64,000 nt of DNA. Origin: an uncultured Pseudomonadota bacterium. Its GTDB lineage: Bacteria; Myxococcota_A; UBA796; GCA-2862545. Below, one piece after another: positions 4,729 through 59,163 of the stretch. A program made the translations under genes and the position numbers. The first letter of the stretch is position 1. Each line of letters begins with the position of its first letter. The stretch is taken from positions 1 through 64,000 of the forward strand of contig CAJXTB010000012.1 of assembly GCA_913061235.1 (NCBI GenBank). Reading direction: 5' to 3'. The notes under the pieces were generated by a model. That model saw only the letters and a list, made by a program, of their open reading frames with translations, ran no database searches and was not told the DNA's origin.

Positions 4729-5378
4729 CGCTCGGCGAGTTCCCAGAGAGTGTTGGAGGACAGCCAGGGCCACTGACCTAGGTGCTGTAACCGTGCGTGT
4801 TCCTCGGCTGCGGCCATTACGACTGACTCATCCATTCCCGTGGGTAGGTCGCCCAGGGCCTCAATGGCCCCCTGAATCCTGGAACGACGGTCGTTATCCG
4901 TCAGTTCAGTCCACAGCTGCCCGTAACAAGTACGAAGTAGCTCAAGGCCGTTGTCTACCAAGTCCTGGTCGATGGTCAGGGCGCTCAGTGCGGTGGCGAG
5001 AACCCCAAAGCTGGCCTGTTCGCCGATGTGCCTGTTGAGCAGCATGCACAGAGGAGTGAACGGGTGGACGTCTTCCTCCTGTGACGACAAATCCCCGGAA
5101 TCGATCTCCTGTGGAAGCGCTGACACACCACCTGACGAGACCTTTGCTAAGTGGCGTTTGGCATGGCTCAGCGACAACGGAATTCGGCTTGGCCGTTTGC
5201 GGCGTGCCTCGGCTGCGCGTTCCAACGCCATGCAGATGCGCGGTACAGGCACCTCTTCGTCCAGCCAGCGCAATAAGAGTTGGCCATCTGCGCTCGAGAA
5301 GAATGGGGCTCCACCGCGTAGACTCACCAAGTGAGCCCGAACCTGCTCGGCGGCGTGCTGTCTGGCCTGGTCGTCCAC
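4725..5378 (-). CDS. unknown protein upstream of the DnaC-like gene
   Basis: A 217-residue soluble, largely helical protein, not recognised. It starts at GTG 5378 with GGAG 6 bases upstream. The middle (about residues 80-105) is acidic and Ser-rich, like a linker between two helical domains. Its 4-base overlap with the DnaC-like ATPase gene means the two are almost certainly co-translated. In other genomes helicase loaders are often encoded beside primosome proteins of the DnaD/DnaB type. The two-domain helical layout would fit, but I see no diagnostic motif, so this is a guess. It is the first gene of the minus-strand operon that runs to the contig end. Confidence 0.7.
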   Translation of the reverse strand: MDDQARQHAAEQVRAHLVSLRGGAPFFSSADGQLLLRWLDEEVPVPRICMALERAAEARRKRPSRIPLSLSHAKRHLAKVSSGGVSALPQEIDSGDLSSQEEDVHPFTPLCMLLNRHIGEQASFGVLATALSALTIDQDLVDNGLELLRTCYGQLWTELTDNDRRSRIQGAIEALGDLPTGMDESVVMAAAEEHARLQHLGQWPWLSSNTLWELAER

Positions 5379-5451
5379 TGTTCACTCCGGTTGCACCTGT
5401 ACTGGCTCCGGCCTAGTATCCGCGGCCCCCTTGTCCGACGAGGCCCACCCC

Positions 5452-6654
5452 ATGGCTGCTCTATTTTCCGCCCCTGGTCGCGCCCTCGCACGCGCACTTC
5501 GCCCACTCGCTGTCGCGGCCGTTGTGCTGTCCATTGGTGGCTCGCCTGCGTTTGCGCAAGATGAAGGCGACGACTTCAACTGGGACGAGTCGGATTTTGA
5601 CGACTTGGATGACGCCGGTGGCGATGACGCCGCAGAAGACGAGGCGGTGGATGAGACTCCGACCGATGACACTGGTGCAGACGAGCTCGACTTTGGCGAC
5701 GAAGACGAGATGGGCAGCTTTGAGTTCCTCGACACAGATGACGACTCAGGCGTCGACTTGCTGGGTGGGGAAGAAGAGCCGCAGTTTGACGACAACGCTG
5801 TAGTCTACCGCCGTACCCAAGAGCGCGCGGCCGATATGGCCCCAGAGGAAGAAGTGGAGTTGTGGGAAGCTTACCTGCGGCGCTACGAAAACTCCGCGTT
5901 CGAAGGCCGTATCCGCGACCGTATTGATGTTGTCATCTCCGATCTCTACGGCGAGCAGCTTCAGACCGGTGAAGTGGATGCTCTAGACGAAGAGCTCGAC
6001 TTCTCGCAGGGCTTGAACCTTGAGATCATGAACCCACGTACCACCATTCAGGCGGGCATTGAGCTTGGGTTCCCCGACTACGTCAACCCGTACTTTGGCT
6101 ACGACCACCAGCTGGCGCGCAACTTCTCAGTGGGTGGCTCGCTTCGGCGTCGCTACACGGGTGCGAGCGTCGAAGCCAGCGCTCGCTACGCGATCATCAA
6201 GTCGGTGAAGACCAACACCTTGTTGACTGCTATCGGCACGGTTCACTTCAATGCGGACCCAACCTTTATTGGCTTCCGTCCAATGATTGCGGCAGGCAAG
6301 CGCTTTGCTGACAAGCTCGATGTTCAGGGGCAGCTCGGCAGCGAACTGGAGCTCGGGCAGGGGCCGGTTGGTATGCGTTGGTTCTTCGGTGCCAACGTCA
6401 CCTACCGTGCATCCGACACTGTGGCCGCATTCCTTGAGACCAGCGGTCAGCTGAAGAACATCACCTTCAGCCCACGTCCGTTCAACTTCACGGTGTTCAC
6501 GTTCGGTATGAAGTTCATGCCACAGCCGAAGGGCCTAGACCCGGGACAGCTGCAGTTCAACGTAGGCGCGAACGTTCCATACGCCACGTCGTACTACCGC
6601 TTCCACTTCGGTAGCATCATGCTTCAGGTCAACTACTACCCGAAGAAGCGCTAG
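5452..6654 (+). CDS. exported protein: acidic N-terminal segment plus outer-membrane barrel-like domain
   Basis: From the ATG at 5452 the protein is 400 residues. It has a long basic-hydrophobic signal peptide ending SPAFAQ. About 90 residues of extreme Asp/Glu content follow, then a short helical segment, then about 220 residues of alternating amphipathic strands (TTIQAGIELGF, NFSVGGSLRRRY, ASVEASARYAI) ending HFGSIMLQVNYYPKKR. This pattern suggests an outer-membrane beta-barrel, although the last residue is not the usual Phe. A TTG 21 bases upstream (5431) is an alternative start. The gene is divergent from the DnaC-like operon, with only about 70 bases between. The acidic region may bind cations or basic partners at the surface (inference). 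Confidence 0.75.
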   Translation: MAALFSAPGRALARALRPLAVAAVVLSIGGSPAFAQDEGDDFNWDESDFDDLDDAGGDDAAEDEAVDETPTDDTGADELDFGDEDEMGSFEFLDTDDDSGVDLLGGEEEPQFDDNAVVYRRTQERAADMAPEEEVELWEAYLRRYENSAFEGRIRDRIDVVISDLYGEQLQTGEVDALDEELDFSQGLNLEIMNPRTTIQAGIELGFPDYVNPYFGYDHQLARNFSVGGSLRRRYTGASVEASARYAIIKSVKTNTLLTAIGTVHFNADPTFIGFRPMIAAGKRFADKLDVQGQLGSELELGQGPVGMRWFFGANVTYRASDTVAAFLETSGQLKNITFSPRPFNFTVFTFGMKFMPQPKGLDPGQLQFNVGANVPYATSYYRFHFGSIMLQVNYYPKKR

Positions 6655-6703
6655 AGAGCTGACCGCGGAATCCTCGCTCGAGTAGAGCTTGGCGGCTCGG
6701 GAG

Positions 6704-6841
6704 TTCAGATATCAGATGTCAGAGCGACCGGCTTCGCCGGGCGCGTGCTGCGGCTTTCGTTAGTTTCACGGTGATTGACGTGCTGCAACATACATCGCCG
6801 GCGTCGTGAGACGCCTGCTCTGACTTCTGACTTCTGACATC
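6704..6841. repeat. 138-base element bounded by inverted TCAGA heptad repeats
   Basis: The left arm (6705-6726) has three TCAGA units at 7-base steps. The right arm (6818-6840), read on the opposite strand, also has three TCAGA units at 7-base steps, and both end in TCAGAGC. The arms thus form an imperfect inverted repeat of about 22 bases around roughly 90 bases. Inside is a small hairpin, CCGGC-TTC-GCCGG (6729-6741). The element sits between a plus-strand gene ending at 6654 and a minus-strand gene ending at 6877, where a two-way terminator or a small mobile repeat would fit. There is no T-run and no open frame inside. Confidence 0.55.
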
Positions 6842-6876
6842 CGTTCTGCATCGGATGTCACCGTGCCGACCCAGAG

Positions 6877-8022
6877 TTAGTCTGGAAGGCGACCGCCACC
6901 AATCAGCAGCCGGCGGATTGGGAACGTCTCATGCAGCACGCTTAGGCGGTTGATGAGGTTCGGAATGGCGTCGAAGCGTGCGCGTCCGAGGTCCACAACG
7001 GTGGCGAGACCCCCGTTTCCAACATCTTCTAGGTCACCGATGTAGTGGAAGCGGCCCGAGTCTGCGTCGCCGAAGTCACCGTTGTAGCCGGCGAGGTACC
7101 ACGACCCGATCGCGTCATCGAGGGCCTCTGCCGCACCTTCACTGGGCTCCATCTGAATGATGATGGGCAGCCAGTGCCACGGGCAGCGAGTGCACACCCA
7201 GGTCTCGAAGGACGGGTCTTCCCAGGGGAACAGGATGGACAGCTGTGCGAGCGGCTCAAGACCGTCCACAGCCACAATCATCGGCTCGGCTTCAGAGTAC
7301 ACGCCGGCGACTTCACCCGTGGTCGGGTTCACCAGGTCCACGCGAACCATGGCGTAGGGGCGTGCTCCTTCGGCAAGGATGGGCTTGACTTCGCCGTCCT
7401 CTCCACGAGCCATACGGGAGGCTTCCGCGTACCAGTCGGGCTGGTTGGAGGCGATGTCATCGAAGTAGGACTTGTAGGACGACGCATGGGCTTCGAGGAA
7501 GACGGTAGGCGGCTCGTCGACGTCTAGGAAGGCTTCGATGGCGCCAGCAACCGCGGCGGCCGCCTCGCGTCGCTCATCGTCTAGACCGGGGTGCTCTGCG
7601 AGCGACTTGTACAGCCGGATACCCTCGAGGACTTCGGTGGTGTCGAGCAGTAGCTGGCCGAGCTGCAAGGCAGCGTCTGGGTGCTGCGGAAAGCGAGACA
7701 CTGTCTCACGTAACACTGCTTTGGCTTCCGCTACACGGTCGGTCAGCTGGTAGGCGCTGGCCAGTCCGGTGAAGAAGTGCACCTTCATGTCAGCGTGCTC
7801 GCTGTCCGGGAAGGCGTCCGACAAGGTCTTGGCCTTCTCGAGGTACGGAATGGCTCCGCCAATGTCACCGCGATGCATGTACGCCATTCCCAGCGCATTG
7901 TTCATGTCAGGGCGTTCAGGTGCGATTGCGACGGCTTTCTCAAAGGAAGCAATCGCGGCTTCGTACTGCTGTTCGTTGACTGCAGCGATGCCCGCTTGGG
8001 CGTGTGTGTCGAGATCGGACAT
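6877..8022 (-). CDS. TPR-repeat protein with unknown C-terminal domain
   Basis: From ATG 8022 (MSDLDTHAQ) the protein has 381 residues and no signal peptide. The first 160 residues are tetratricopeptide-like repeats (EQQYEAAIASFEKAVAIAP and similar, with ALGMAYMHRGDIGGAIPYLEKA). TPRs mediate protein-protein contacts. The C-terminal 200 residues are a separate domain with a W-rich, Cys-containing stretch (TWVCTRCPWHWLPIII), not recognised. A start 12 bases upstream (MGFAM) is also possible. It is transcribed alone, with gene-poor DNA on both sides. Confidence 0.75.
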   Translation of the reverse strand: MSDLDTHAQAGIAAVNEQQYEAAIASFEKAVAIAPERPDMNNALGMAYMHRGDIGGAIPYLEKAKTLSDAFPDSEHADMKVHFFTGLASAYQLTDRVAEAKAVLRETVSRFPQHPDAALQLGQLLLDTTEVLEGIRLYKSLAEHPGLDDERREAAAAVAGAIEAFLDVDEPPTVFLEAHASSYKSYFDDIASNQPDWYAEASRMARGEDGEVKPILAEGARPYAMVRVDLVNPTTGEVAGVYSEAEPMIVAVDGLEPLAQLSILFPWEDPSFETWVCTRCPWHWLPIIIQMEPSEGAAEALDDAIGSWYLAGYNGDFGDADSGRFHYIGDLEDVGNGGLATVVDLGRARFDAIPNLINRLSVLHETFPIRRLLIGGGRLPD

Positions 8023-47504: not shown

Positions 47505-49571
47505 CTAGCGTGTGCAGCGGAATCCACGTTCTGCGATGGCGCGGCCATTGGGCTCCCCGGTCTTGACGTCGCCGCCAGACGTTCGTGATGCCGGCAGTCC
47601 GTCAACACTCCGCCACTCTTCATCTGGGGCGCCTACCCATGTCATGGGCGTGGAATCGGCGGAACGTACACCGCCACGGCCCTCGCAGTAGGCCGACGCC
47701 GCTTCCCACGACACCATGGTGACGGCTCCACCTGGTGGGCTCGGCGTCCAGTTGCGTAGGTAGCGCCGGTTCACCCGGCCATCGTCAATCGCTGCGTCCC
47801 GTTCCCATTCAGGATGCCGTTCCAGCCAGCGGGCGAATGCGTCTCCACTGACAACGGCTGGCGTCCTGCTTGCTTGGGGGGGAGCGCCTGCAGGTGAGGG
47901 AAGCTCTACGGCGACATCCATCGGCTGTGTACTCGCCGCAACGGTGATGGCTTGCCCAATTGAGGCACAGCCGGTCGGACACTCTAGACCTGGGTCGTTG
48001 CTGCAATCCAGAGCGCTGTCTGGGCACTCGCCAACGTCGATGAACAGAAGGTGTCTGCCAGGATGAACGCTGTCAAAGACGACGCTGGACCCATCAGGAA
48101 CACCCACAATCGGGCCCAGTCGAGCACGAGTAATGGGCTGCGAACCTCGGATGATGAGGGCTCGTGGACTGGCTGAGGATGCGATGAGTCCCAGCGTTGC
48201 TGCCCCTTCACCTGCTGGCACATTCACGCTTGTGTCACCCGTCGTACACCAGGTCTCGCACTGTGCTGGGCAGGAGTCCGAGATGCAGCCCATTCCGGCT
48301 GCCCATCCAAGGTTTGCTCCGCCGACCGGCATGCCCGTCATCAGGACTGGGCCCGAGCCCTGACGGGTCACTCGCTGGCCGGCCGAGACCACCACAACAT
48401 CAATTCCGTCTTCTACGCCCACGATATTGAGCGTCACATCGCGCACGGGACCCGCTACAATCGGCTCTGCTACGGGGGGGAGTGCTTCGACGGATGGTGG
48501 ACCGAACTGGTTCAAGAAGACGCTGATGACCACGATGCAGGCGGACAAGAGCACCATTGGGATGACGAAAAGGAGCATTCCAAAACGCCGCGAGATGGGG
48601 TGTGGTTGGGCTTTGGCTGGAGCAGCTGGCTGTGGAGTTTCGTCTCCGAGCAAGCGGGTTGCATCAATGGGGTGGACTGGCTCTGATACGCCTCGGATGG
48701 GAGCGCTCTGTGGAGTGAACAGGGTCTCTCGAAAGTCATCGGCTCGGTCTGGCCCGTCAAGCAGTTGTCCGTCTACGAACAGCTTGGAAAGGACGTCGTT
48801 GGCCGATTGAATGCGCTTGTCTACATCCACCGTGAGCAGGCCGTTGAGGGCTTCGACGATGACCTTTGGCAGGTCGGGGCGCAGAGCGGTGACCGGGCGC
48901 ATCTGTCGGTTCGCGATCTTGTTGAAGGTCGCCAGGTGATTCTCGCCGGCGAACGGTGTGGTCCCGGTCAGCATCTCGTACAGCATGACCCCAAGCGCCC
49001 ATAGGTCTGCTCGATGGTCGACCTTGGAGGCGTCGTTGATTTGCTCAGGCGACATGTAGTTGGGCGTTCCCATCATCACGCCAGTGCGGGTGTTGCCCTC
49101 TTCAATGACCTTGACCAGTCCAAAGTCGCTCACCTTGGGCACCATGCCAACGTTGGTGCGGGCCATGATGATGTTGGCGGGCTTCAGGTCACGGTGAACG
49201 AGTCCCGCCTCATGTGCCGCTCCGATTCCGGAGGCGATACCTCGGAAGATTCGCAGCGCTTCTTCTACGCTCATGGGCTCTTGGACCAGCTCGTACAGCG
49301 TTGGACCGTTCACGTACTCCATCACCAAAGCGAGGTTGATGCCTTGCTCAATGACGTCGGTGACCGCCACAATATTGGGGTGCTTGAGCGAGGCTTGAAC
49401 ACGTCCTTCGAGTAAGAGTCGCTTGCGGATCTGCGGTCCGTTGACCTGAAGGACCTTGATGGCGTGCTTTGAGCGGAGACGCCGGTGTCGGGCCAGGTAG
49501 ACCACGGACATGCCGCCTTGTCCGAGCACGCGCTCGATGACGTAGCGATCGATTCGGTCGCCAGCTCTCAC
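47505..49571 (-). CDS. membrane Ser/Thr kinase with C-terminal sulfatase-modifying-factor-like domain
   Basis: 688 residues. The kinase domain (about 8-270) is complete: LGQGGMSVVYLA, HAIKVL lysine, HRDLKPANI, SDFGLVKV, GTPNYMSPEQ. A linker and one membrane helix follow (about 335-360: LLFVIPMVLLSACIVVISV). The outer part has PEGA-like strands with Cys pairs. The last 110 residues (FARWLERHPEWERD, RYLRNWTPSPPGG, VTMVSWEAASAYCEGRGG, then ERGFRCTR) match the formylglycine-generating-enzyme (SUMF1) fold, in shortened form. It starts at GTG overlapping the lipase stop (GTGA). The outer domain probably senses a ligand, not a sulfatase. Confidence 0.9.
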   Translation of the reverse strand: MRAGDRIDRYVIERVLGQGGMSVVYLARHRRLRSKHAIKVLQVNGPQIRKRLLLEGRVQASLKHPNIVAVTDVIEQGINLALVMEYVNGPTLYELVQEPMSVEEALRIFRGIASGIGAAHEAGLVHRDLKPANIIMARTNVGMVPKVSDFGLVKVIEEGNTRTGVMMGTPNYMSPEQINDASKVDHRADLWALGVMLYEMLTGTTPFAGENHLATFNKIANRQMRPVTALRPDLPKVIVEALNGLLTVDVDKRIQSANDVLSKLFVDGQLLDGPDRADDFRETLFTPQSAPIRGVSEPVHPIDATRLLGDETPQPAAPAKAQPHPISRRFGMLLFVIPMVLLSACIVVISVFLNQFGPPSVEALPPVAEPIVAGPVRDVTLNIVGVEDGIDVVVVSAGQRVTRQGSGPVLMTGMPVGGANLGWAAGMGCISDSCPAQCETWCTTGDTSVNVPAGEGAATLGLIASSASPRALIIRGSQPITRARLGPIVGVPDGSSVVFDSVHPGRHLLFIDVGECPDSALDCSNDPGLECPTGCASIGQAITVAASTQPMDVAVELPSPAGAPPQASRTPAVVSGDAFARWLERHPEWERDAAIDDGRVNRRYLRNWTPSPPGGAVTMVSWEAASAYCEGRGGVRSADSTPMTWVGAPDEEWRSVDGLPASRTSGGDVKTGEPNGRAIAERGFRCTR

Positions 49572-51094: not shown

Positions 51095-52159
51095 ATGCGT
51101 ACCTCTCTTGTCTTTATCGCTAGCGTTGTGGCCCTTGCAGGCTGTCGCCCCGAGTTCACCTCCGTTGAAGAGGCGTGCCAAGACAGCGCGCCCGGCAGCG
51201 CCAAGGCGTCCGACAACGCGATTGCAGCGGCTGTTCGTGGAAACTGCTACCGCCGCTTGGTCGGTCAAGCACCCGCCCCGGTGGACGATGAGTACTCCGC
51301 AGCGTCGCGCGCCCATGCCCGATACGTCGACCAGAACGGCTTTCTTCGCGAGGAATCAAGTGGTGAATCCGAGAGCCCGGAGAACCCTGGGTTCACTGGG
51401 GAGACCTCTCCTGAGCGCTTGCGGGCTCAGGGCTACGATGCGCTGGACCAAGACTCCGGCATCGTCTTTTATTGGACCTTAGAGCTTCCCTCTGTTGGCA
51501 CAGTGCCCAACGAGGTGGATGTGTGGATGGATCACTGGATTACGCGTCAGGTCGTGCTTCAACCTGGTGTGTTTGACTCCGGCTATGGGCGTTCGGGCGA
51601 AGCTTCCGTCTATGAGAACCTGTCAGAGTTTCCATCGGATGACCGGGTCGAGAAGCCTTTCGTCTACCCCAAGGACGGTCAGTCCAACGTGCCGTTCAGC
51701 ATCGTGAACAACTTCGCGACCGAGATCGTTCCAGAGGCGGCAGTCGTCGGCTACCCGATCACCATCACCGTGTCGTCGTCTGCCTTGGGCAGCGATGCGT
51801 TCGACGAAAACCCTTATGGGTTGGTGCTTCTCGAACAGCAGATTCTGGACCCGGACAACAACCTGGTGCCGGCGTACGAGATTCAGCCCGGCACGACCGT
51901 TTTGCCGTTCCCGTACTCCATCGCGTTGGTTCCGCGTGAGCCGCTTGCCCCGAACACCGAGTACCGCGTGTTTGCCCGTGTGAGCTGGGCCGACGGCATC
52001 AAGAATGTCGAGGCCACCTTCACAACAGGTTCGGACGGTGTGGATGTCACGGCAGACGGCGAGCTGGACGAAGAAGCGGCGCGCGTTGCCGCCTACCAGT
52101 CGGGTCTGACGATTCGTCGCAGCGTGCTCAGCCCCCGGTCCCCGGTTCTTCCCCAGTAG
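51095..52159 (+). CDS. lipoprotein with CAP-like and Ig-like domains
   Basis: 354 residues. Lipobox ALAGC follows MRTSLVFIASVV. Residues about 60-185 resemble a CAP/SCP domain (ASRAHARYVDQNGFLREES, PGFTGETSPERLRAQGYDAL, MDHWITRQVVLQPGVFDSGY). The usual catalytic-like His pair is only partly conserved. Residues about 200-325 look like an Ig-like Big_5 module (FVYPKDGQSNVPFSI, REPLAPNTEYRVFARVSW). CAP proteins occur in cell-surface and secreted settings with diverse roles. Its last 32 bases overlap the convergent gene on the other strand. Confidence 0.8.
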   Translation: MRTSLVFIASVVALAGCRPEFTSVEEACQDSAPGSAKASDNAIAAAVRGNCYRRLVGQAPAPVDDEYSAASRAHARYVDQNGFLREESSGESESPENPGFTGETSPERLRAQGYDALDQDSGIVFYWTLELPSVGTVPNEVDVWMDHWITRQVVLQPGVFDSGYGRSGEASVYENLSEFPSDDRVEKPFVYPKDGQSNVPFSIVNNFATEIVPEAAVVGYPITITVSSSALGSDAFDENPYGLVLLEQQILDPDNNLVPAYEIQPGTTVLPFPYSIALVPREPLAPNTEYRVFARVSWADGIKNVEATFTTGSDGVDVTADGELDEEAARVAAYQSGLTIRRSVLSPRSPVLPQ

Positions 52160-52726: not shown

Positions 52727-53836
52727 ATGACACTGACTCGCGCCGTTCTCGCGGTTGCCCTTGTGGGCCTCGTTACACCCGCCGTTGCTGGCAAAGCCGA
52801 GCAACGCCTACTTGAACGGGTCATGGCCTATGCGAGCGCCCCTGAGCTGGTCCTGACACCACCGTCCAGCGTGCCGTCGCCGCCTATGGGCAGCTTCGTC
52901 GTTCCTTACGCAGCCCCTGGTGGTGGTGAGCCCGACCCGCGTCGTGCCGGAACCTACTCGGCCGCTCCTAGTAGCTGTAGTGAATCGCTGCGCTTCCAGA
53001 CTGTTCCTGCGACCGAGAGTCGCCAAGAGCTCTGGGCCACGGAGACTGGAATTGGCGTCTCGATTGGCCTGCCCATGGTCGAGATTGGTGGCAGCTGGGG
53101 ACGCAAGTCTATGGCTGGCATCGAGTACCACATCACTGAAAAAGTGATTCTGGACGGCGGTCTAGGCGAGCTGGAAGAGTGCTGTCTTCGCACCCCAGAG
53201 CGCTGTACTGGCGAGTACATCAGCGAGTCGTGGAAGGGGACCGCCCGCATTCATCGCATGGTGTCCAGCAAGTCTGGCCTCAAGCCCATCATCAAGCAGC
53301 TTGAGCAAGTGGGAAGCGTCGACTTCACCAACTCCCGCGGTTTCTCCATGTCGAGCGAGTGGTCCGAGCCGCAGTACTTCGCGTACCGCACGGTTCCATT
53401 CCAGATTCCGCGCTGTGACAGCTACATGAACAGCCTCGAAGAGCGCGACGGCATGGTGTTGTTTAGTGGTGTGAGCGAGCGCACGGACTCCGAGCAAGAT
53501 GCTCGCCGGGATGCTCGTGATGACGCTCGCCGCCAGGTCGCGGAGTACCTTGGACAGACCTTCTCTATCCAAGGCGATGTCGCGCTGTCGAATGCAGAGT
53601 CGCTCATCAGCGGCGTCAAGGACTCGCTGACTTGTCTGGACCCGGTGATGGAGTCCGCGTCTGGACCTCGCTACCTCGCCCGCGTTCGCATGTACGCATC
53701 GTCCGACGACCTGCAAGCGGGCCGGACTGGTGTGCGTTCGACACTCGGAGACGGTCCTGTACCGGTTGAAGGAAGTGGAATGGACCGCATCGATCCCGCT
53801 CCTGAAATGCGTCGCGCACCGACTCCGCGTCGCTAG
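52727..53836 (+). CDS. exported LPP20-like protein of the caspase operon
   Basis: 369 residues. Signal peptide MTLTRAVLAVALVGLVTPAVA. A Pro/Gly-rich segment follows, then a Cys-containing middle (LEECCLRTPERCTGEY). Residues about 250-330 follow the LPP20/FlgT pattern: FSGVSERTDSEQDARRDARD, DDARRQVAEYLGQTF, ending RYLARVRMYAS. In that fold repeated Ala-rich helices pack on a sheet. GGAGG precedes the ATG region. Its stop TAG shares one base with the next start (TAGTG). Function in the operon is unknown; a binding or adaptor role for the caspase is inferred. Confidence 0.78.
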   Translation: MTLTRAVLAVALVGLVTPAVAGKAEQRLLERVMAYASAPELVLTPPSSVPSPPMGSFVVPYAAPGGGEPDPRRAGTYSAAPSSCSESLRFQTVPATESRQELWATETGIGVSIGLPMVEIGGSWGRKSMAGIEYHITEKVILDGGLGELEECCLRTPERCTGEYISESWKGTARIHRMVSSKSGLKPIIKQLEQVGSVDFTNSRGFSMSSEWSEPQYFAYRTVPFQIPRCDSYMNSLEERDGMVLFSGVSERTDSEQDARRDARDDARRQVAEYLGQTFSIQGDVALSNAESLISGVKDSLTCLDPVMESASGPRYLARVRMYASSDDLQAGRTGVRSTLGDGPVPVEGSGMDRIDPAPEMRRAPTPRR

Positions 53837-55056
53837 TGCGCCGGATACTTCCAATTGCTCTTGTGGCGTGCTGGGCGGGCGTTTCGTTCGCTGACCCGCC
53901 ACCACCGGGTGCTCCGGAGTGCCAGACCCTCCCGCCAGACGCTGAGTTTCGCCACTACACGGGCTACGGCGTTGCCGGGTCTGAGGTCGTTGCACTTCAG
54001 AGTGCTCGCGCGGACGCGTATGAGCAAGCGCGCACAGCGGTGTGTGCTGGGCGTCTGGGTAAGCGACGCTGTGAAGCGACGGTTGCTCATTTGGCCCAGC
54101 TTGATGAGCAGGCCCAGTACATTCGTAAGGGCTACCCGCGGCGTCAGCGCTGGCGGTCGTGCTTTACGCTTCAGATCGAGCGTCAATACGTCGATCTTGG
54201 CCACCTTCAGGAGACCTTTCGCGGTGACCTCGGTCGCATGGCCGCGCAGGTCTCGGCCCGCTTTGGTCGCGAAGCCCTTCGTGTCGAACCACCGGTTTGG
54301 GCGGAGAGCCAGTGCAGTGTGGGTGGAGTGGGTGAGGTGCTTGTGGGCGAGGTCGCTGGTGCCTTCGCGAACCAACGCGTTCGCATTGACGACAGCAACT
54401 TCGAAGGCCCGTCCATGCGCATGCAGTTGGCTCGAACGGGCGATGGCCTGAACTTGGTGCCTACCTACGTTGACGGCTTAGGCGTGACGACCCGTATGGC
54501 TCCGGTCAGCTTTCTACCCGAACTGTACGGTCTAGAAGACGCCGAAGAGCCCTCCTGTCGCTGGGACAATGAGCTCGGCTTGACCGAGGGGCATCGCACT
54601 GGGGCCGATGGTCGCACGGTTCGTATGGTCATCACTGGAAACAGTGGTGAGTACTGCGAAGGCGACCGAATGGAGCCTATGGTTCTTGTCGACCGTCCCT
54701 CTCGCGTACGCGTGTACAGCGTGGAGCGCGACGGCCGGGCGTTGGTCATCTGGCCCTATTCGCCCGATCAGGACGACCTCGTAGAGCGGAGCTTGTCCTT
54801 GGGAGAAGCGCAGGTCCAGCGTCCAAAGCTCGGTGAAGAGCGGTTGGTCGCGGTTGCGATTCCTGCAGAAGAGGACTTTGGCGACGTCTCCGGTTGGAGA
54901 GGTTGCTACTGGCCAACGACCTTTGGTGAGACGGCTATGCCGCCTGACGCGGCCGTGGGCTCGGTTGGATTTTTGGTCGCACCAGAGGGAACGGAAGGAT
55001 GTCCAATGGACGTCGCGCTCGTACCCTTTCCGGTGTTGCCGACGTGTGGCGACTAG
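53836..55056 (+). CDS. exported LPP20/DUF4384-like protein of the caspase operon
   Basis: 406 residues from GTG 53836. The signal peptide ends AGVSFA. The first third repeats the LPP20-type theme of its neighbour (GVAGSEVVALQSARADAYEQ, then RRQRWRSCFTLQIERQYVD). The last third resembles DUF4384 (DRPSRVRVYSVERDGRALVI, then WPYSPDQDDLVERSLSLGEAQ). DUF4384 is often found fused to bacterial caspases; here it is a separate protein encoded just before a caspase. Paired Cys suggest disulfides. It is probably a partner or ligand-binding subunit of the caspase. Confidence 0.75.
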   Translation: MRRILPIALVACWAGVSFADPPPPGAPECQTLPPDAEFRHYTGYGVAGSEVVALQSARADAYEQARTAVCAGRLGKRRCEATVAHLAQLDEQAQYIRKGYPRRQRWRSCFTLQIERQYVDLGHLQETFRGDLGRMAAQVSARFGREALRVEPPVWAESQCSVGGVGEVLVGEVAGAFANQRVRIDDSNFEGPSMRMQLARTGDGLNLVPTYVDGLGVTTRMAPVSFLPELYGLEDAEEPSCRWDNELGLTEGHRTGADGRTVRMVITGNSGEYCEGDRMEPMVLVDRPSRVRVYSVERDGRALVIWPYSPDQDDLVERSLSLGEAQVQRPKLGEERLVAVAIPAEEDFGDVSGWRGCYWPTTFGETAMPPDAAVGSVGFLVAPEGTEGCPMDVALVPFPVLPTCGD

Positions 55057-55100
55057 CGCTGCGGCCTAGACATCTAGGCAATTTTTTTTGGAGATGTGAC

Positions 55101-57908
55101 ATGCGCAAAATGGCTGTAGCGCTTGGATTATGGTTGGCGACGTCGGCGGTGGCAATGGCCGATCCCATGTCGTGGCCTGACTTGTCACAGGTCCCGGAAG
55201 GGATGTCCGGTGGCGGCAAAGACGCGGCCATCATCGTGGGCGTTGAGAACTATACGTACCTACCGGATGTGCCCGGAGCCGCACAGAATGCGCTGGACTG
55301 GTACCGGTTCTTGAGTGCCCGTGGTGTGCCCAGTCACAAGATTCGCCTGCTCGTCGACCCCATCCGGGACAGCGACGGCCGTATGGCTACGGACGACCCC
55401 CAAGGAACCAATGACGGTATCTTGGCCGCCGTTCATCAAGCCGCCGCAGATGTTGAAGAGGGCGGCACGCTGTGGTTCATCTTCATTGGACATGGTGCTC
55501 CCGGCCTTGGCGGCGACGACGGCATGCTTGTTGGCGTTGACGCCAGCGGTACCGCGCGCGGTATCTACAGCCGAAGTGTGTCTCGGGACAAGGTTCTGGC
55601 AACGCTCGCTGAAGGCTCGCAGGCCGAGACCGTCGCGATTCTCGACACCTGCTTTTCCGGTCGCTCACCCAGTGGAGACGCCCTGGTCGCGGACCTTCAG
55701 CCGGTGATTCCCATCGGCCTGTCCGTCTCGACTGCCGCAACGGTTCTTACGGCAACATCGTCCAACCAGTTTGCTGGCCCGCTCCCTATGGGTGGGCGGC
55801 CAGCGTTTAGCTACCTGACGTTGGGCGCGCTGCACGGCTGGGGCGACTTGAATCGCGACGGCCAGGTGACGGCGTCGGAAGCGGTGACCTACTCACGCAA
55901 CTCGCTGCTGTCGCTCATCACTGACCGCGTGCAAGAACCGCAGCTCGAAGGCGGCAATGCCAACTTGGTGCTGAGCGAAGCCACAGGTGTTGGCCCAGAC
56001 ATTGATGAGATGCGTCTGGCCCTCATCAACAATCCCGGCGGAACGGTGGTCAACGACCCCGGAAACCCTCTTGGTAGCTTTGTCATTGACGTCGACGTCA
56101 GCAGCATGCTCGCTGAACAGCAGTGTGAGCGCTCGGCGACCGACCAAGCCTCGGCCATGCAGCGCGACACGTTGGCCACACGACAAGAAGAAGACTCAGA
56201 GCAGATCTTGGAGCAATGGGAGACCCTGTCGGAGCAAGCCACCGCATGCTCCCAGCTCGACGATGCGCCCACCCGTCGCCGCTGTCATGAGCAGGTGACC
56301 GCCTTTGGAGACGCCCTCGAAGGCCGGCAAGTCGAGGTCCCCGCACGTGTTGTCGCTGTGGACACCACCTGTGGCCAACGACAGTCGGCGGTTGAAGGAC
56401 TCTCGGCACCGTCCCAGGCAGCTGTGGATGTCTTGATGCAGGTCGAAGGTGTGCTATCTCGCTACAATGCTGAAGATCGGCTGGGTGGCGCGACGTCAAC
56501 ACCCACCCCGGGCACGGGTGGTGGAAGCCTTCCGCTGGGACGTGCCGGGCAAGTCCAAGAGTCACTGCGTGCAGGCTTCAGCGGTGACCCGCGCGTCATC
56601 CCGGTTCGAGTCGCAGGTACCGCTGAGCAGACCATCCGTACAACAGCATTGGACCTGGGCCCCAACTGTGGGGGCTACGTGGCCTCGGACGCCCCTGCGC
56701 TTACCTTGGAATACCGTGCAGGCCGAAGCCCACTGCGTATCGCTGCCTGTTCAGCCGCCGACACCACCTTGTTGGTTCGCGGCCCGGGTGGGTCGTGGCA
56801 GTGTGATGACGACACCACCGGCGTGAACCCCGAAGTGCGGCTGAACACACCGCGTACGGGCACCTACGAGGTGTTCATTGGCAACGTCTCCCCCGAGTCG
56901 ACCACCGCTGAACTCAAGCTGTCGGAGCTGACCAGTCGCGCTCTGTGTGAGGCCACTGTCGCTCCAACACCAACCCCGGCGCCAACCACTGCGCGACCGA
57001 ATCGCCTCCAACACACCCAATCTCCGCGCTACGGTACTGCGACACTCCGAGCTGGCTTTAGCGGTGACCCACGCTGGGTTGCAGCCCAAGCCGGTGGGTC
57101 GGGCTCGTCCGCCGTTCAGGTGTCGACACTTGGCTTAGGTGGCGGCTGTCGCGGTGTTGTAGACGCAACCCGTCCTGACTACCTCATCGACTATGACCCC
57201 GGTCAATACGCACTGCGCACTGGCTTCTGCTCCGACGGCGATACCAGCTTGGTGATTCGCTCTCCGTCGGGTCGCTGGTCTTGTGACGACGACGGCGGAA
57301 GCGGAAACAATCCAGAAGTCGCGTTTACCCAGCCCGAGAGCGGCTTGTACGGCGTGTGGATTGGCACCGTCGACGGTCCGCTTCACAACGGCCATCTGTG
57401 GATGTCCGAGCGTGCCAACGGCGACCCTTGCCGAAGCGCTCCGAACGCACCGACTCCTGTCTCTGAGCCTGCAGTGTCCGTGGGTGGGCGTCCCAACTAC
57501 TCGGGTACCCCACGCTATGGCTCTATGAACCTTCGTTCTGGATTCACCAACGACCCGGCTACTGTCGATGTTGTTGCCGGTGGGCAGTCCAGCGTGCGTC
57601 GCATGAACCTCGACCCGGCGTGTAGCGGATTCATCGCTCCTGCCCAGCCCGACTACCGAGTGAACTTCGAGGCCGGTCGCTACACCTTCCGCATTGCTGC
57701 GTGTTCAAGCGCCGATACCACCCTTGTAGTCAGTGACGGCCGAGGAAACTGGCGCTGTGCAGACGACTCCGAGGGGCGCAACCCCATCGTCCAGTGGAAT
57801 GACGCCCCATCCGGTGCCTACGACGTCTGGGTTGGCCGCATCTCTCCGGGAGAAGCGGACGCTACCTTGGTCATGAGTGAAGCCGAAGGTCCGTACTGTC
57901 GCGACTGA
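55101..57908 (+). CDS. exported caspase-family peptidase with three beta-sandwich repeats
   Basis: 935 residues from ATG 55101 (GGAG 7 bases upstream; longer frames lack a site). Signal peptide of 20 residues (SAVAMA). The C14 caspase domain (about 41-325) has the catalytic His131 in FIFIGHGAPG and Cys184 in AILDTCFSG, both intact. An EF-hand-like loop, DLNRDGQVTASEAVTY, lies inside it. A Cys-containing helical region follows (about 335-460). Three homologous repeats of about 130 residues begin near residues 477, 642 and 803, each with a GFxxDP start and a D(T)xLxV...W.C.DD core ending in VWIG or similar. They resemble prepeptidase C-terminal-type modules. It is the last gene of a three-gene exported operon. 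Confidence 0.88.
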   Translation: MRKMAVALGLWLATSAVAMADPMSWPDLSQVPEGMSGGGKDAAIIVGVENYTYLPDVPGAAQNALDWYRFLSARGVPSHKIRLLVDPIRDSDGRMATDDPQGTNDGILAAVHQAAADVEEGGTLWFIFIGHGAPGLGGDDGMLVGVDASGTARGIYSRSVSRDKVLATLAEGSQAETVAILDTCFSGRSPSGDALVADLQPVIPIGLSVSTAATVLTATSSNQFAGPLPMGGRPAFSYLTLGALHGWGDLNRDGQVTASEAVTYSRNSLLSLITDRVQEPQLEGGNANLVLSEATGVGPDIDEMRLALINNPGGTVVNDPGNPLGSFVIDVDVSSMLAEQQCERSATDQASAMQRDTLATRQEEDSEQILEQWETLSEQATACSQLDDAPTRRRCHEQVTAFGDALEGRQVEVPARVVAVDTTCGQRQSAVEGLSAPSQAAVDVLMQVEGVLSRYNAEDRLGGATSTPTPGTGGGSLPLGRAGQVQESLRAGFSGDPRVIPVRVAGTAEQTIRTTALDLGPNCGGYVASDAPALTLEYRAGRSPLRIAACSAADTTLLVRGPGGSWQCDDDTTGVNPEVRLNTPRTGTYEVFIGNVSPESTTAELKLSELTSRALCEATVAPTPTPAPTTARPNRLQHTQSPRYGTATLRAGFSGDPRWVAAQAGGSGSSAVQVSTLGLGGGCRGVVDATRPDYLIDYDPGQYALRTGFCSDGDTSLVIRSPSGRWSCDDDGGSGNNPEVAFTQPESGLYGVWIGTVDGPLHNGHLWMSERANGDPCRSAPNAPTPVSEPAVSVGGRPNYSGTPRYGSMNLRSGFTNDPATVDVVAGGQSSVRRMNLDPACSGFIAPAQPDYRVNFEAGRYTFRIAACSSADTTLVVSDGRGNWRCADDSEGRNPIVQWNDAPSGAYDVWVGRISPGEADATLVMSEAEGPYCRD

Positions 57909-57915
57909 CAGGCCC

Positions 57916-59163
57916 TTAGGCTTGTAGCCACGGGTAGCTGCTGCCATTGCGAGACCACACATGGCGGCCACGAATCCACGTGTCACGTGGCCGTGGTGCG
58001 TCGTGGTCGAACAGTAGCCATGCGAGGGCACCGTCGGCGTCATCCACCCAGTCTGGAAGCTCGTGCACGACCATGTCGGCTCGGAATCCAGCCGTGAGCT
58101 GTCCGCTGTCGGATTGACCCAGAGCTTCGGCACCCCCGCGGGTTGCCCACCAGAACAGCTGCTCGGGCCGCACGGGATGACCGGTGGCGAGGGCGTTGTC
58201 GTAGGCAGCAGAGGCCTGGCGGGGAATGCGGTAGCTCCGTCCGCCCGCAATGTCGGAGCCGAGAGCAATCGGGATGTGGCGCTTGAGCAGCTTGCCGATT
58301 GGCATGTGACCGGACCCCAAGAAGGCGTTCGAGTCTGGACAGTGGGCAACGACGGCCTTGGCTGCGGCCATGCGGTCCATTTCGCTGTCTGTGAGATGGA
58401 TGCAGTGGGCGTAGACGGACTTGCTGTGGACCATACCTGCGTCTTCGTAGATCTGCAGGTAGTCGTCGGTACCGAAGCGCTCACGAGCGATCTGGCACTC
58501 TACGGTGTTCTCGGACAGATGGGTGGTGACCCACAGGTCGTGGTCCTTCGCGAACTGGCCGGCCGTGGTGAGCATCTCGCGGGTGCAGGACAGCGCAAAG
58601 CGTGGAACGACGGCCAGCTCAGTGAGCCCCCCGGGTGTGTGCCAGCGCTCGTGCAGGCGTGCGAGCTCTTCCATGGCAGGGCCTACCTGGACCATCAGGG
58701 CTTCGGGGCTGTGCTTGTCCATCAACACGGGCCCGCCAATGACGTGCACGCCAGCTTCAGTAGCTGCGGCGAACAGTGCGTCTGCCGAGGGGCCGTGAAC
58801 GCTTCCGTAGACCAAGGCTGTTGTCGTGCCGGCAGCAGCGAGGTTCTGTACGAAAATCTTGGCGATACGTTCGGCATGGTCGGACGCCGCGAAGCGGGAT
58901 TCTTCGGGGAAGGTGGTCTTGTCGAGCCACTCTAAGAGGGGGCCGCTGGCTGCACCGACAATGCGTGTCTGCGGAAAGTGGACGTGTGCGTCAACGAATC
59001 CGGGGGTGAGCAAGCCGTCCCGAACGTCTTCGTGGCACAGGCCGCCGTCCCATGGACCAATGCTCTCGATCCGCTCTCCGTCGATAACGACGAGCGCATC
59101 GGATAGGTACTCGACCTCATTGGGTCCGAGTGGATTCAGAACGCGGGCACGAATTCGAGTCAC
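57916..59163 (-). CDS. guaD: guanine deaminase
   Basis: 415 residues, amidohydrolase fold. Guanine deaminase turns guanine into xanthine. Zinc ligands and signatures: GFVDAHVHFPQTRIVG, PRFALSCTREML, VTTHLSENTVE, VYAHCIHLTDSE and ALGSDIAGG. It is slightly shorter than the 430-450 usual length but complete. No transport signal is seen. Its stop lies 7 bases from the caspase stop, tail to tail. Together with hpt further right it hints at purine salvage, though the two genes are not linked in one operon. Confidence 0.92.
   Translation of the reverse strand: MTRIRARVLNPLGPNEVEYLSDALVVIDGERIESIGPWDGGLCHEDVRDGLLTPGFVDAHVHFPQTRIVGAASGPLLEWLDKTTFPEESRFAASDHAERIAKIFVQNLAAAGTTTALVYGSVHGPSADALFAAATEAGVHVIGGPVLMDKHSPEALMVQVGPAMEELARLHERWHTPGGLTELAVVPRFALSCTREMLTTAGQFAKDHDLWVTTHLSENTVECQIARERFGTDDYLQIYEDAGMVHSKSVYAHCIHLTDSEMDRMAAAKAVVAHCPDSNAFLGSGHMPIGKLLKRHIPIALGSDIAGGRSYRIPRQASAAYDNALATGHPVRPEQLFWWATRGGAEALGQSDSGQLTAGFRADMVVHELPDWVDDADGALAWLLFDHDAPRPRDTWIRGRHVWSRNGSSYPWLQA

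What the first reader, a model, noticed from the sequence alone, without database searches (positions are those of the whole stretch)
52727..57908. Split, fully exported caspase system: LPP20-like, LPP20/DUF4384-like and caspase with three tail repeats
Three consecutive genes, linked by a 1-base overlap and a 44-base gap, all begin with signal peptides. The caspase keeps His131 and Cys184, carries an EF-hand-like loop, and ends in three homologous beta-sandwich repeats. DUF4384 is commonly fused to caspases; here it is a separate exported partner. Both small partners share an LPP20-like theme. This could be an extracytoplasmic, calcium-tuned protease complex rather than a cytoplasmic death effector.
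Basis: partly seen in the sequence, partly recalled or inferred. Interest (0 to 1): 0.75.

Follow-up and report, generated by a model that had tools for sequence, protein, structure and literature searches.

The report
Exported caspase with two envelope partners
Three neighbouring genes encode an exported caspase-like protease and two exported partner proteins, a set that recurs across the phylum of this bacterium (its named relatives are Myxococcota), which suggests that some bacterial caspases work in the cell envelope instead of inside the cell.

Summary
P1 (52727-53836), P2 (53836-55056) and a caspase (55101-57908) are consecutive, each with a signal peptide. The caspase keeps His131 and Cys184, has an EF-hand-like loop (249-260) and ends in three PPC-like repeats (about 40% identical). 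P1 and P2 match no NCBIfam model, and no Pfam model except DUF4384 in P2. They sit side by side in related genomes and recur across the phylum. A caspase lies beside them in 16 of 20 loci sampled outside the window's class. In the window's order, genomes with P1-P2 and genomes with a close relative of this caspase coincide (16 of 19 versus 0 of 39; Fisher p about 1e-11, threshold chosen post hoc, phylogeny not removed). Many homologues carry lipoboxes.

DUF4384 in P2 is weak in the window protein and clear in relatives. LPP20 is not detected by profile; only fold-level hints exist (Lpp20, HP1454, LpoB, FlgT). The tail repeats are particular to this genome. Calcium control and complex formation are inferred, not shown. 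Best reading: an envelope-located caspase module whose P2 docks the protease through DUF4384. I found no description of the trio.

The parts
52727..53836 (+). P1, 369 aa, exported. Signal peptide 1-21, conserved Cys-rich core (about 80-228) and a C-terminal domain (about 240-340) with weak fold-level likeness to FlgT N-terminal domain/Lpp20. No database family.
53836..55056 (+). P2, 406 aa, GTG start, exported (possible lipobox LVAC at 9-12). N-terminal LPP20/HP1454-like and middle LpoB-like domains by predicted fold; DUF4384 from about residue 270.
55101..57908 (+). Exported caspase homologue (C14, orthocaspase-like), 935 aa; the ORF can be extended to 54999 but the signal peptide starts at 55101
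55221..56036 (+). Caspase catalytic domain (about aa 41-312): His131, Cys184, Asp182 (predicted basic-residue specificity)
55845..55880 (+). EF-hand-like loop DLNRDGQVTASE (aa 249-260)
56547..56975 (+). PPC-like tail repeat 1
57021..57470 (+). PPC-like tail repeat 2
57486..57905 (+). PPC-like tail repeat 3
55064..55089 (+). Terminator-like hairpin plus T run between P2 and the caspase; not more than chance would give

Best explanation
This is a conserved extracytoplasmic caspase module. SHOWN: three consecutive genes with signal peptides; the P1 and P2 families pair with each other; across the phylum they lie beside exported caspases and, in the window's order, co-occur with this caspase subfamily; the catalytic dyad is kept. 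INFERRED: P1 and P2 are envelope-anchored proteins of the HP1454/FlgT/LpoB style (lipoproteins in many relatives, perhaps soluble P1 here). P2 holds the caspase through its DUF4384 domain, a domain elsewhere fused to or encoded next to exported caspases. The caspase, loaded with calcium through its EF-hand-like loop, cleaves envelope or surface proteins after Arg/Lys. In this genome the caspase gained three PPC-like repeats that probably bind a surface or substrate. It is therefore more likely a regulated envelope processing or remodelling protease than a cytoplasmic death effector.
For: Signal peptides in essentially all homologues of all three families, and lipoboxes in many. P1-P2 adjacency in 16 of 18 strong P2 loci of the order, with a 17th split over two contig ends. 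Adjacent caspase in 9 loci of the order and in 16 of 20 loci from outside the class, in varying gene order. Co-occurrence of P1-P2 with close relatives of this caspase, 16/19 versus 0/39 genomes, and 8/8 versus 0/13 within the window's family. Linked caspases come from different branches of the caspase tree, with at least 4 label changes forced. DUF4384 in relatives of P2 (1.6e-6) and DUF4384 fused to or next to exported caspases elsewhere in the order. Invariant His131, Asp182 and EF-like loop ends. Conserved cysteines in P1 and P2 fit an oxidising compartment.
Against: No experiment. Physical interaction was not tested. Eight P2 loci of the order (G005, G010, G012, G020:C50, G026, G035, G038, G053) have no caspase homologue next door, so linkage is not obligatory. 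P1 without P2 exists in several genomes (G003, G015, G037, G151). The co-occurrence threshold was chosen after seeing the data and phylogeny is only partly controlled. The P1 fold model is poor (pLDDT 52). A calcium role rests on sequence pattern only. A terminator-like hairpin lies between P2 and the caspase, although such hits are expected by chance.
Confidence: 0.55

Rival explanations
1. P1 and P2 form an independent envelope lipoprotein pair (FlgT/HP1454/LpoB style) and caspases are merely frequent neighbours in genomes rich in exported caspases.
For: P1-P2 occur without an adjacent caspase in eight P2 loci of the order, and P1 occurs alone in some genomes.
Against: Matches to this caspase number only a few per genome, yet caspases lie next to the pair in 9 loci of the order and beside P1 and/or P2 in 16 of 20 loci from outside the class, in several gene orders. 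Co-occurrence within one family is perfect at the chosen threshold. P2 carries a DUF4384, a domain repeatedly tied to caspases.
Confidence: 0.2
2. P1 is a pore-forming (perforin/MACPF-like) protein that the caspase activates by cleavage outside the cell, an extracytoplasmic counterpart of gasdermin activation, used against neighbours or prey.
For: Foldseek of the P1 model returns mostly MACPF/CDC folds (PlyB, Astrotactin-2, TgPLP1, complement C9), plus Lpp20; strand order with two low-confidence Gly/Ser/Ala-rich segments resembles that fold.
Against: The model is low confidence (pLDDT 52), with no Foldseek match better than E 2.7e-3. Profile comparison with ten MACPF proteins of the phylum fails (E 0.1-0.28), while a MACPF positive control succeeds (E 1e-16). 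No Pfam MACPF match.
Confidence: 0.1
3. A cytoplasmic programmed-death or anti-phage caspase effector, as caspase homologues are often assumed to be.
For: The caspase weakly matches the PADLOC caspase model (1.6e-7; 24 of 25 homologues).
Against: Signal peptides or lipoboxes in all three genes and their homologues. No PADLOC match for the partners. The same three families stay together across distant classes of the phylum.
Confidence: 0.06

Closest known systems
Prokaryotic orthocaspases/metacaspases (peptidase C14; Asplund-Samuelsson et al. 2012, PMC3501461; PMC6426788)
   Same: Caspase domain with His/Cys dyad and acidic residue before the Cys; C-terminal FGE-sulfatase fusions in relatives; N-terminal signal-like helices reported in some; conserved operons reported in Myxococcus and other Deltaproteobacteria.
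   Different: The reported myxobacterial operons pair the caspase with sigma-70 factors. No P1/P2 pair is described in the passages read; here the caspase is linked to two exported partners phylum-wide.
DUF4384-containing orthocaspases (PMC7475262, PMC6426788; G054:C105 and others here)
   Same: Association of DUF4384 with caspases, exported ones in this order.
   Different: DUF4384 sits in a separate exported protein with two extra N-terminal domains, not fused to the protease.
Sigma factor / anti-sigma(DUF4384) / exported caspase operons (G000:C5 and relatives)
   Same: Split DUF4384 next to an exported caspase, in the same genome.
   Different: DUF4384 is the outer part of a membrane anti-sigma-like protein; no P1 partner.
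Lpp20/HP1454, FlgT/FlgO/FlgP, LpoB envelope proteins
   Same: Exported or lipoprotein, weak fold-level similarity (HP1454 and LpoB for P2; Lpp20 and FlgT for the P1 C-terminus).
   Different: No profile match to LPP20; no link to flagella or penicillin-binding proteins seen; P2 ends in DUF4384.
PPC (pre-peptidase C-terminal) domains, PF04151
   Same: C-terminal beta-sandwich-like repeats on an exported peptidase; a homologous repeat protein in the same genome passes the PPC cut-off.
   Different: Window repeats themselves are below the cut-off and form a family particular to this genome.

Membership tests
Peptidase C14 / orthocaspase | p20 caspase domain by profile | tested here: met
   Window protein: no PF00656 hit, NCBIfam NF047832 6e-14 (below cut-off), PADLOC caspase 1.6e-7; homologues: PF00656 in 13 of 25, best 1.5e-14; PDB metacaspase-1 3.5e-5
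Peptidase C14 / orthocaspase | His-Cys catalytic dyad | tested here: met
   His131 invariant, Cys184 nearly invariant among 25
Peptidase C14 / orthocaspase | Absence of p10 domain; proteolysis after Arg/Lys | not tested
   Asp182 before the Cys is invariant, as expected for basic specificity; activity and p10 not tested
DUF4384 (PF14326) | Score above the gathering cut-off | tested here: inconclusive
   Window P2 14.5 bits vs 27; homologues to 1.6e-6; a second P2 homologue in G027 passes the cut-off, 31.8 bits; four members of the phylum-wide set match, best 3.7e-7
LPP20 (PF02169) | Profile match | tested here: not met
   No hit in P1, P2 or homologues; hhalign E 0.49 and 0.033 against a two-sequence LPP20 profile
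LPP20 / FlgT / LpoB fold class | Fold similarity | tested here: inconclusive
   P2 model: HP1454 E 3e-3, LpoB TM 0.51 over target; P1: Lpp20 TM 0.45 over target in a poor model; FlgT E 0.47 by profile; FlgO 0.0015 and FlgT_N 0.002 in one member each
EF-hand | 12-residue calcium loop consensus | tested here: met
   DLNRDGQVTASE; D249 and E260 invariant, D253, G254 and V256 nearly so; flanking helices and calcium binding not tested
PPC (PF04151) | Profile match of tail repeats | tested here: inconclusive
   Window 18.1 bits vs 25.9; homologous repeat protein at G000:C14 33.6 bits, 7.5e-8
MACPF/CDC pore former | Profile match of P1 core | tested here: not met
   hhalign E 0.1-0.28 while positive control gives 1e-16

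The most novel reading that the evidence does not exclude
A phylum-wide, lipoprotein-anchored caspase complex in which P2 docks the protease by DUF4384 and P1 is a perforin-fold protein processed by it: an extracytoplasmic bacterial analogue of caspase-gasdermin activation.
Probability: 0.08. Interest if true: 0.95.

Novelty: new variant of a known kind. Interest (0 to 1): 0.62.

Why it matters
Bacterial caspase homologues are usually discussed as cytoplasmic death or defence proteases, and their partners and substrates are mostly unknown. A phylum-wide three-gene set in which the protease and both partners are exported, often as lipoproteins, gives a concrete partner (P2 through DUF4384) and compartment to test, offers a role for the unexplained DUF4384 domain, and names two protein families that matched nothing curated apart from DUF4384.

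Tried and rejected
LPP20 assignment by profile: rejected. P1 as a MACPF family member: tested with a profile of ten MACPF proteins of the phylum and a positive control, not supported (a first script failed). An anti-phage reading: no PADLOC match for the partners. Tail repeats as a conserved part of the system: rejected, full-length matches only in this genome. Intrinsic terminator between P2 and the caspase: hits no more frequent than in shuffles and not the minimum-energy fold. Genome-contig scan with P1 alone found nothing; with a closer sub-alignment 7 loci in MAGs titled Deltaproteobacteria, Proteobacteria or Myxococcota. The PDB profile search with P2 gave only weak lectin/dehydrogenase matches.
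Full report
WHAT IS THERE. Three genes in a row on the + strand: P1 (52727-53836, 369 aa), P2 (53836-55056, 406 aa, GTG start, 1-base overlap with P1) and a caspase homologue (start 55101, 44 bases after P2, stop 57908, 935 aa). Each begins with a classical signal peptide. Neighbours on both sides are on the opposite strand and look unrelated: a small lipoprotein-like gene ending at 52128 and an amidohydrolase-like gene at 57916-59163 (by reading the translations; these two were not profile-searched).

THE CASPASE. The window protein does not itself match PF00656, but scores 6e-14 against an NCBIfam caspase model (below cut-off) and 1.6e-7 against the PADLOC caspase model; 13 of 25 aligned homologues match PF00656, best 1.5e-14; the profile finds PDB metacaspases at 3.5e-5. 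His131, Asp182, Asp249 and Glu260 are invariant in 25 homologues and Cys184 nearly so; one homologue (L076) has lost the Cys. Members of the C14B group cleave after basic residues (PMC6426788); that the Asp before the Cys gives this preference is from general knowledge, so basic specificity is a prediction. The loop DLNRDGQVTASE is a good EF-hand consensus; the loose pattern hit 24 of 30 homologous stretches, at least two of them at a different place in the domain, against 0.009 per 300 residues in background ORFs. Pfam EF-hand models do not report it in the window protein, so calcium binding is a prediction.

THE TAIL. Three repeats of about 140 aa are 39-43% identical (E 1e-30 to 5e-34) with conserved cysteines. 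A two-repeat protein elsewhere in the genome (G000:C14) passes the PPC cut-off (7.5e-8), so the repeats are PPC-like. Full-length copies exist only in this genome: ten repeats in five proteins, four of which are proteins with a signal-like N-terminus and no caspase domain. Other caspases of the family carry FGE-sulfatase or TPR/Sel1 domains instead. The tail is thus a local addition.

P1 AND P2. P1 matches nothing convincing in Pfam or NCBIfam. Its family has a clear signature over 39 phylum-wide members, including C84, CC152-153, C160, E167-x3-G171-x-G173 and F218. P2 has DUF4384 near its C-terminus: sub-threshold in the window (0.038) but 1.6e-6 in a relative, with four matches (best 3.7e-7) in the phylum-wide set. 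An AlphaFold model of P2 (pLDDT 78) suggests three domains; Foldseek gives HP1454 second, and LpoB with TM 0.51 over the target. HP1454's first domain is reported to be structurally similar to Lpp20 (PMC11756786). The P1 model is poor (pLDDT 52); its matches are mainly MACPF/CDC folds, with Lpp20 lower down. Profile comparison does not support MACPF (with positive control). So the LPP20 theme is a fold-level hint, not a family assignment.

CONSERVATION IN THE ORDER. P2 homologues with E below 1e-60 occur at 18 loci in 16 of 71 class genomes; P1 is next to P2 in 16 of these, and in one more (G035) the two genes sit at the ends of two contigs. A caspase is adjacent in 9: G000, G011, G020:C1, G031 and G048 in the order P1-P2-caspase; G002, G007, G027 and G046 in other orders. 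Eight P2 loci have no caspase homologue next door. The linked caspases do not form one clade; starred branches force at least 4 label changes. Using the caspase search and the P2 search, genomes with P1-P2 and genomes whose best caspase match is at or below 1e-21 coincide: 16 of 19 with, 0 of 39 without; Fisher p about 1e-11; within family f1 8 of 8 against 0 of 13. The threshold was chosen after looking; over all 58 genomes p stays below 1e-4 for all thresholds tried from 1e-15 to 1e-30. Phylogenetic non-independence is not removed.

CONSERVATION IN THE PHYLUM. P1 matches 53 and P2 42 of 331 genomes sampled. I fetched 20 of the P1 or P2 loci from outside the class (18 genomes), chosen before looking for caspases. 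A caspase lies beside P1 and/or P2 in 16 of the 20 (in L165 the caspases flank P2 and P1 is some kilobases away; in L174 the caspase is 1.6 kb from P1). Three of the four exceptions (L166, L172, L175) are contigs of 4.6-15 kb; the fourth (L183) has P1 alone. In a scan of 50 of these proteins, ten match PF00656 and four match DUF4384. Many P1 and P2 proteins here have a lipobox, and some caspases too; in L184 all three do. Some proteins in this set match HEAT repeats, in line with long N-terminal extensions seen before several caspase domains.

DUF4384 AND CASPASES. Of 13 DUF4384 hits in the order, most lie in or beside an exported caspase: fused (G054 twice, G018:C342, G023) or in the gene next door (G018:C195, G014, G004, G028, G019, G000:C5, and a degenerate caspase in G027), and for two (G038:C207, G021) no caspase was seen. 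Several of the separate ones look like membrane anti-sigma proteins with DUF4384 outside; in this genome, at C5, the order is ECF-like sigma factor, anti-sigma-like protein with DUF4384, exported caspase (sigma and anti-sigma assignments by reading the sequences). Sigma-factor/caspase operons in myxobacteria were reported before (PMC3501461). DUF4384 and caspase being both fused and split is the usual argument for interaction, and makes P2 the likely docking partner. This step is inferred.

HOW IT PROBABLY WORKS. Exported P1 and P2 form an envelope platform, P2 binds the caspase by DUF4384, and calcium outside the cytoplasm keeps the protease competent. It then processes envelope or surface proteins after basic residues. 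In this genome the PPC-like tail probably adds a binding function. Membership: the caspase is a C14 orthocaspase-like enzyme; P2 is a DUF4384 protein at family level; neither partner is an LPP20 family member by test.

LITERATURE AND NOVELTY. Exported caspase homologues, FGE-sulfatase fusions and DUF4384 fusions are known. The P1-P2-caspase set was not found in the searches made; the library holds open-licence papers only, so absence is weak evidence. I rate it a new variant of a known kind.

Noticed in passing
L075 (G000:C5:60000-74000) 5077-7975: Second split system in the same genome: ECF-like sigma factor, anti-sigma-like membrane protein with DUF4384 above cut-off, and an exported caspase, genes overlapping by 4 bases.
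   Followed up: partly
L066 8581-9729, L067 9600-10493, L068 8574-9479, L069 7632-8126 (G000:C20, C6, C14, C9): Four further exported-looking proteins made of one or two of the same PPC-like repeats as the caspase tail; a repeat expansion seen only in this genome.
   Followed up: partly
L076 1429-3243: Exported caspase homologue that has lost the catalytic Cys (DASLRG): a likely pseudo-caspase.
   Followed up: no
L173, L176, L177, L178 caspase genes: Caspases beside P1 with a long N-terminal extension that looks HEAT-repeat-like, before the catalytic domain.
   Followed up: no
L165 4114-18500: Four exported caspase genes within 15 kb, around P2 and P1.
   Followed up: no
P1, window 52727-53836: Low-confidence model whose nearest folds are perforin/CDC pore formers; sequence profiles do not support it.
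   Followed up: partly
window 55064-55089: Perfect 6-bp hairpin and T run between P2 and the caspase, overlapping its ribosome-binding region; could be an attenuator or chance.
   Followed up: partly
window 47508-49571: Ser/Thr protein kinase gene with a transmembrane-like segment and a large part beyond it, about 3 kb upstream of the trio on the other strand.
   Followed up: no
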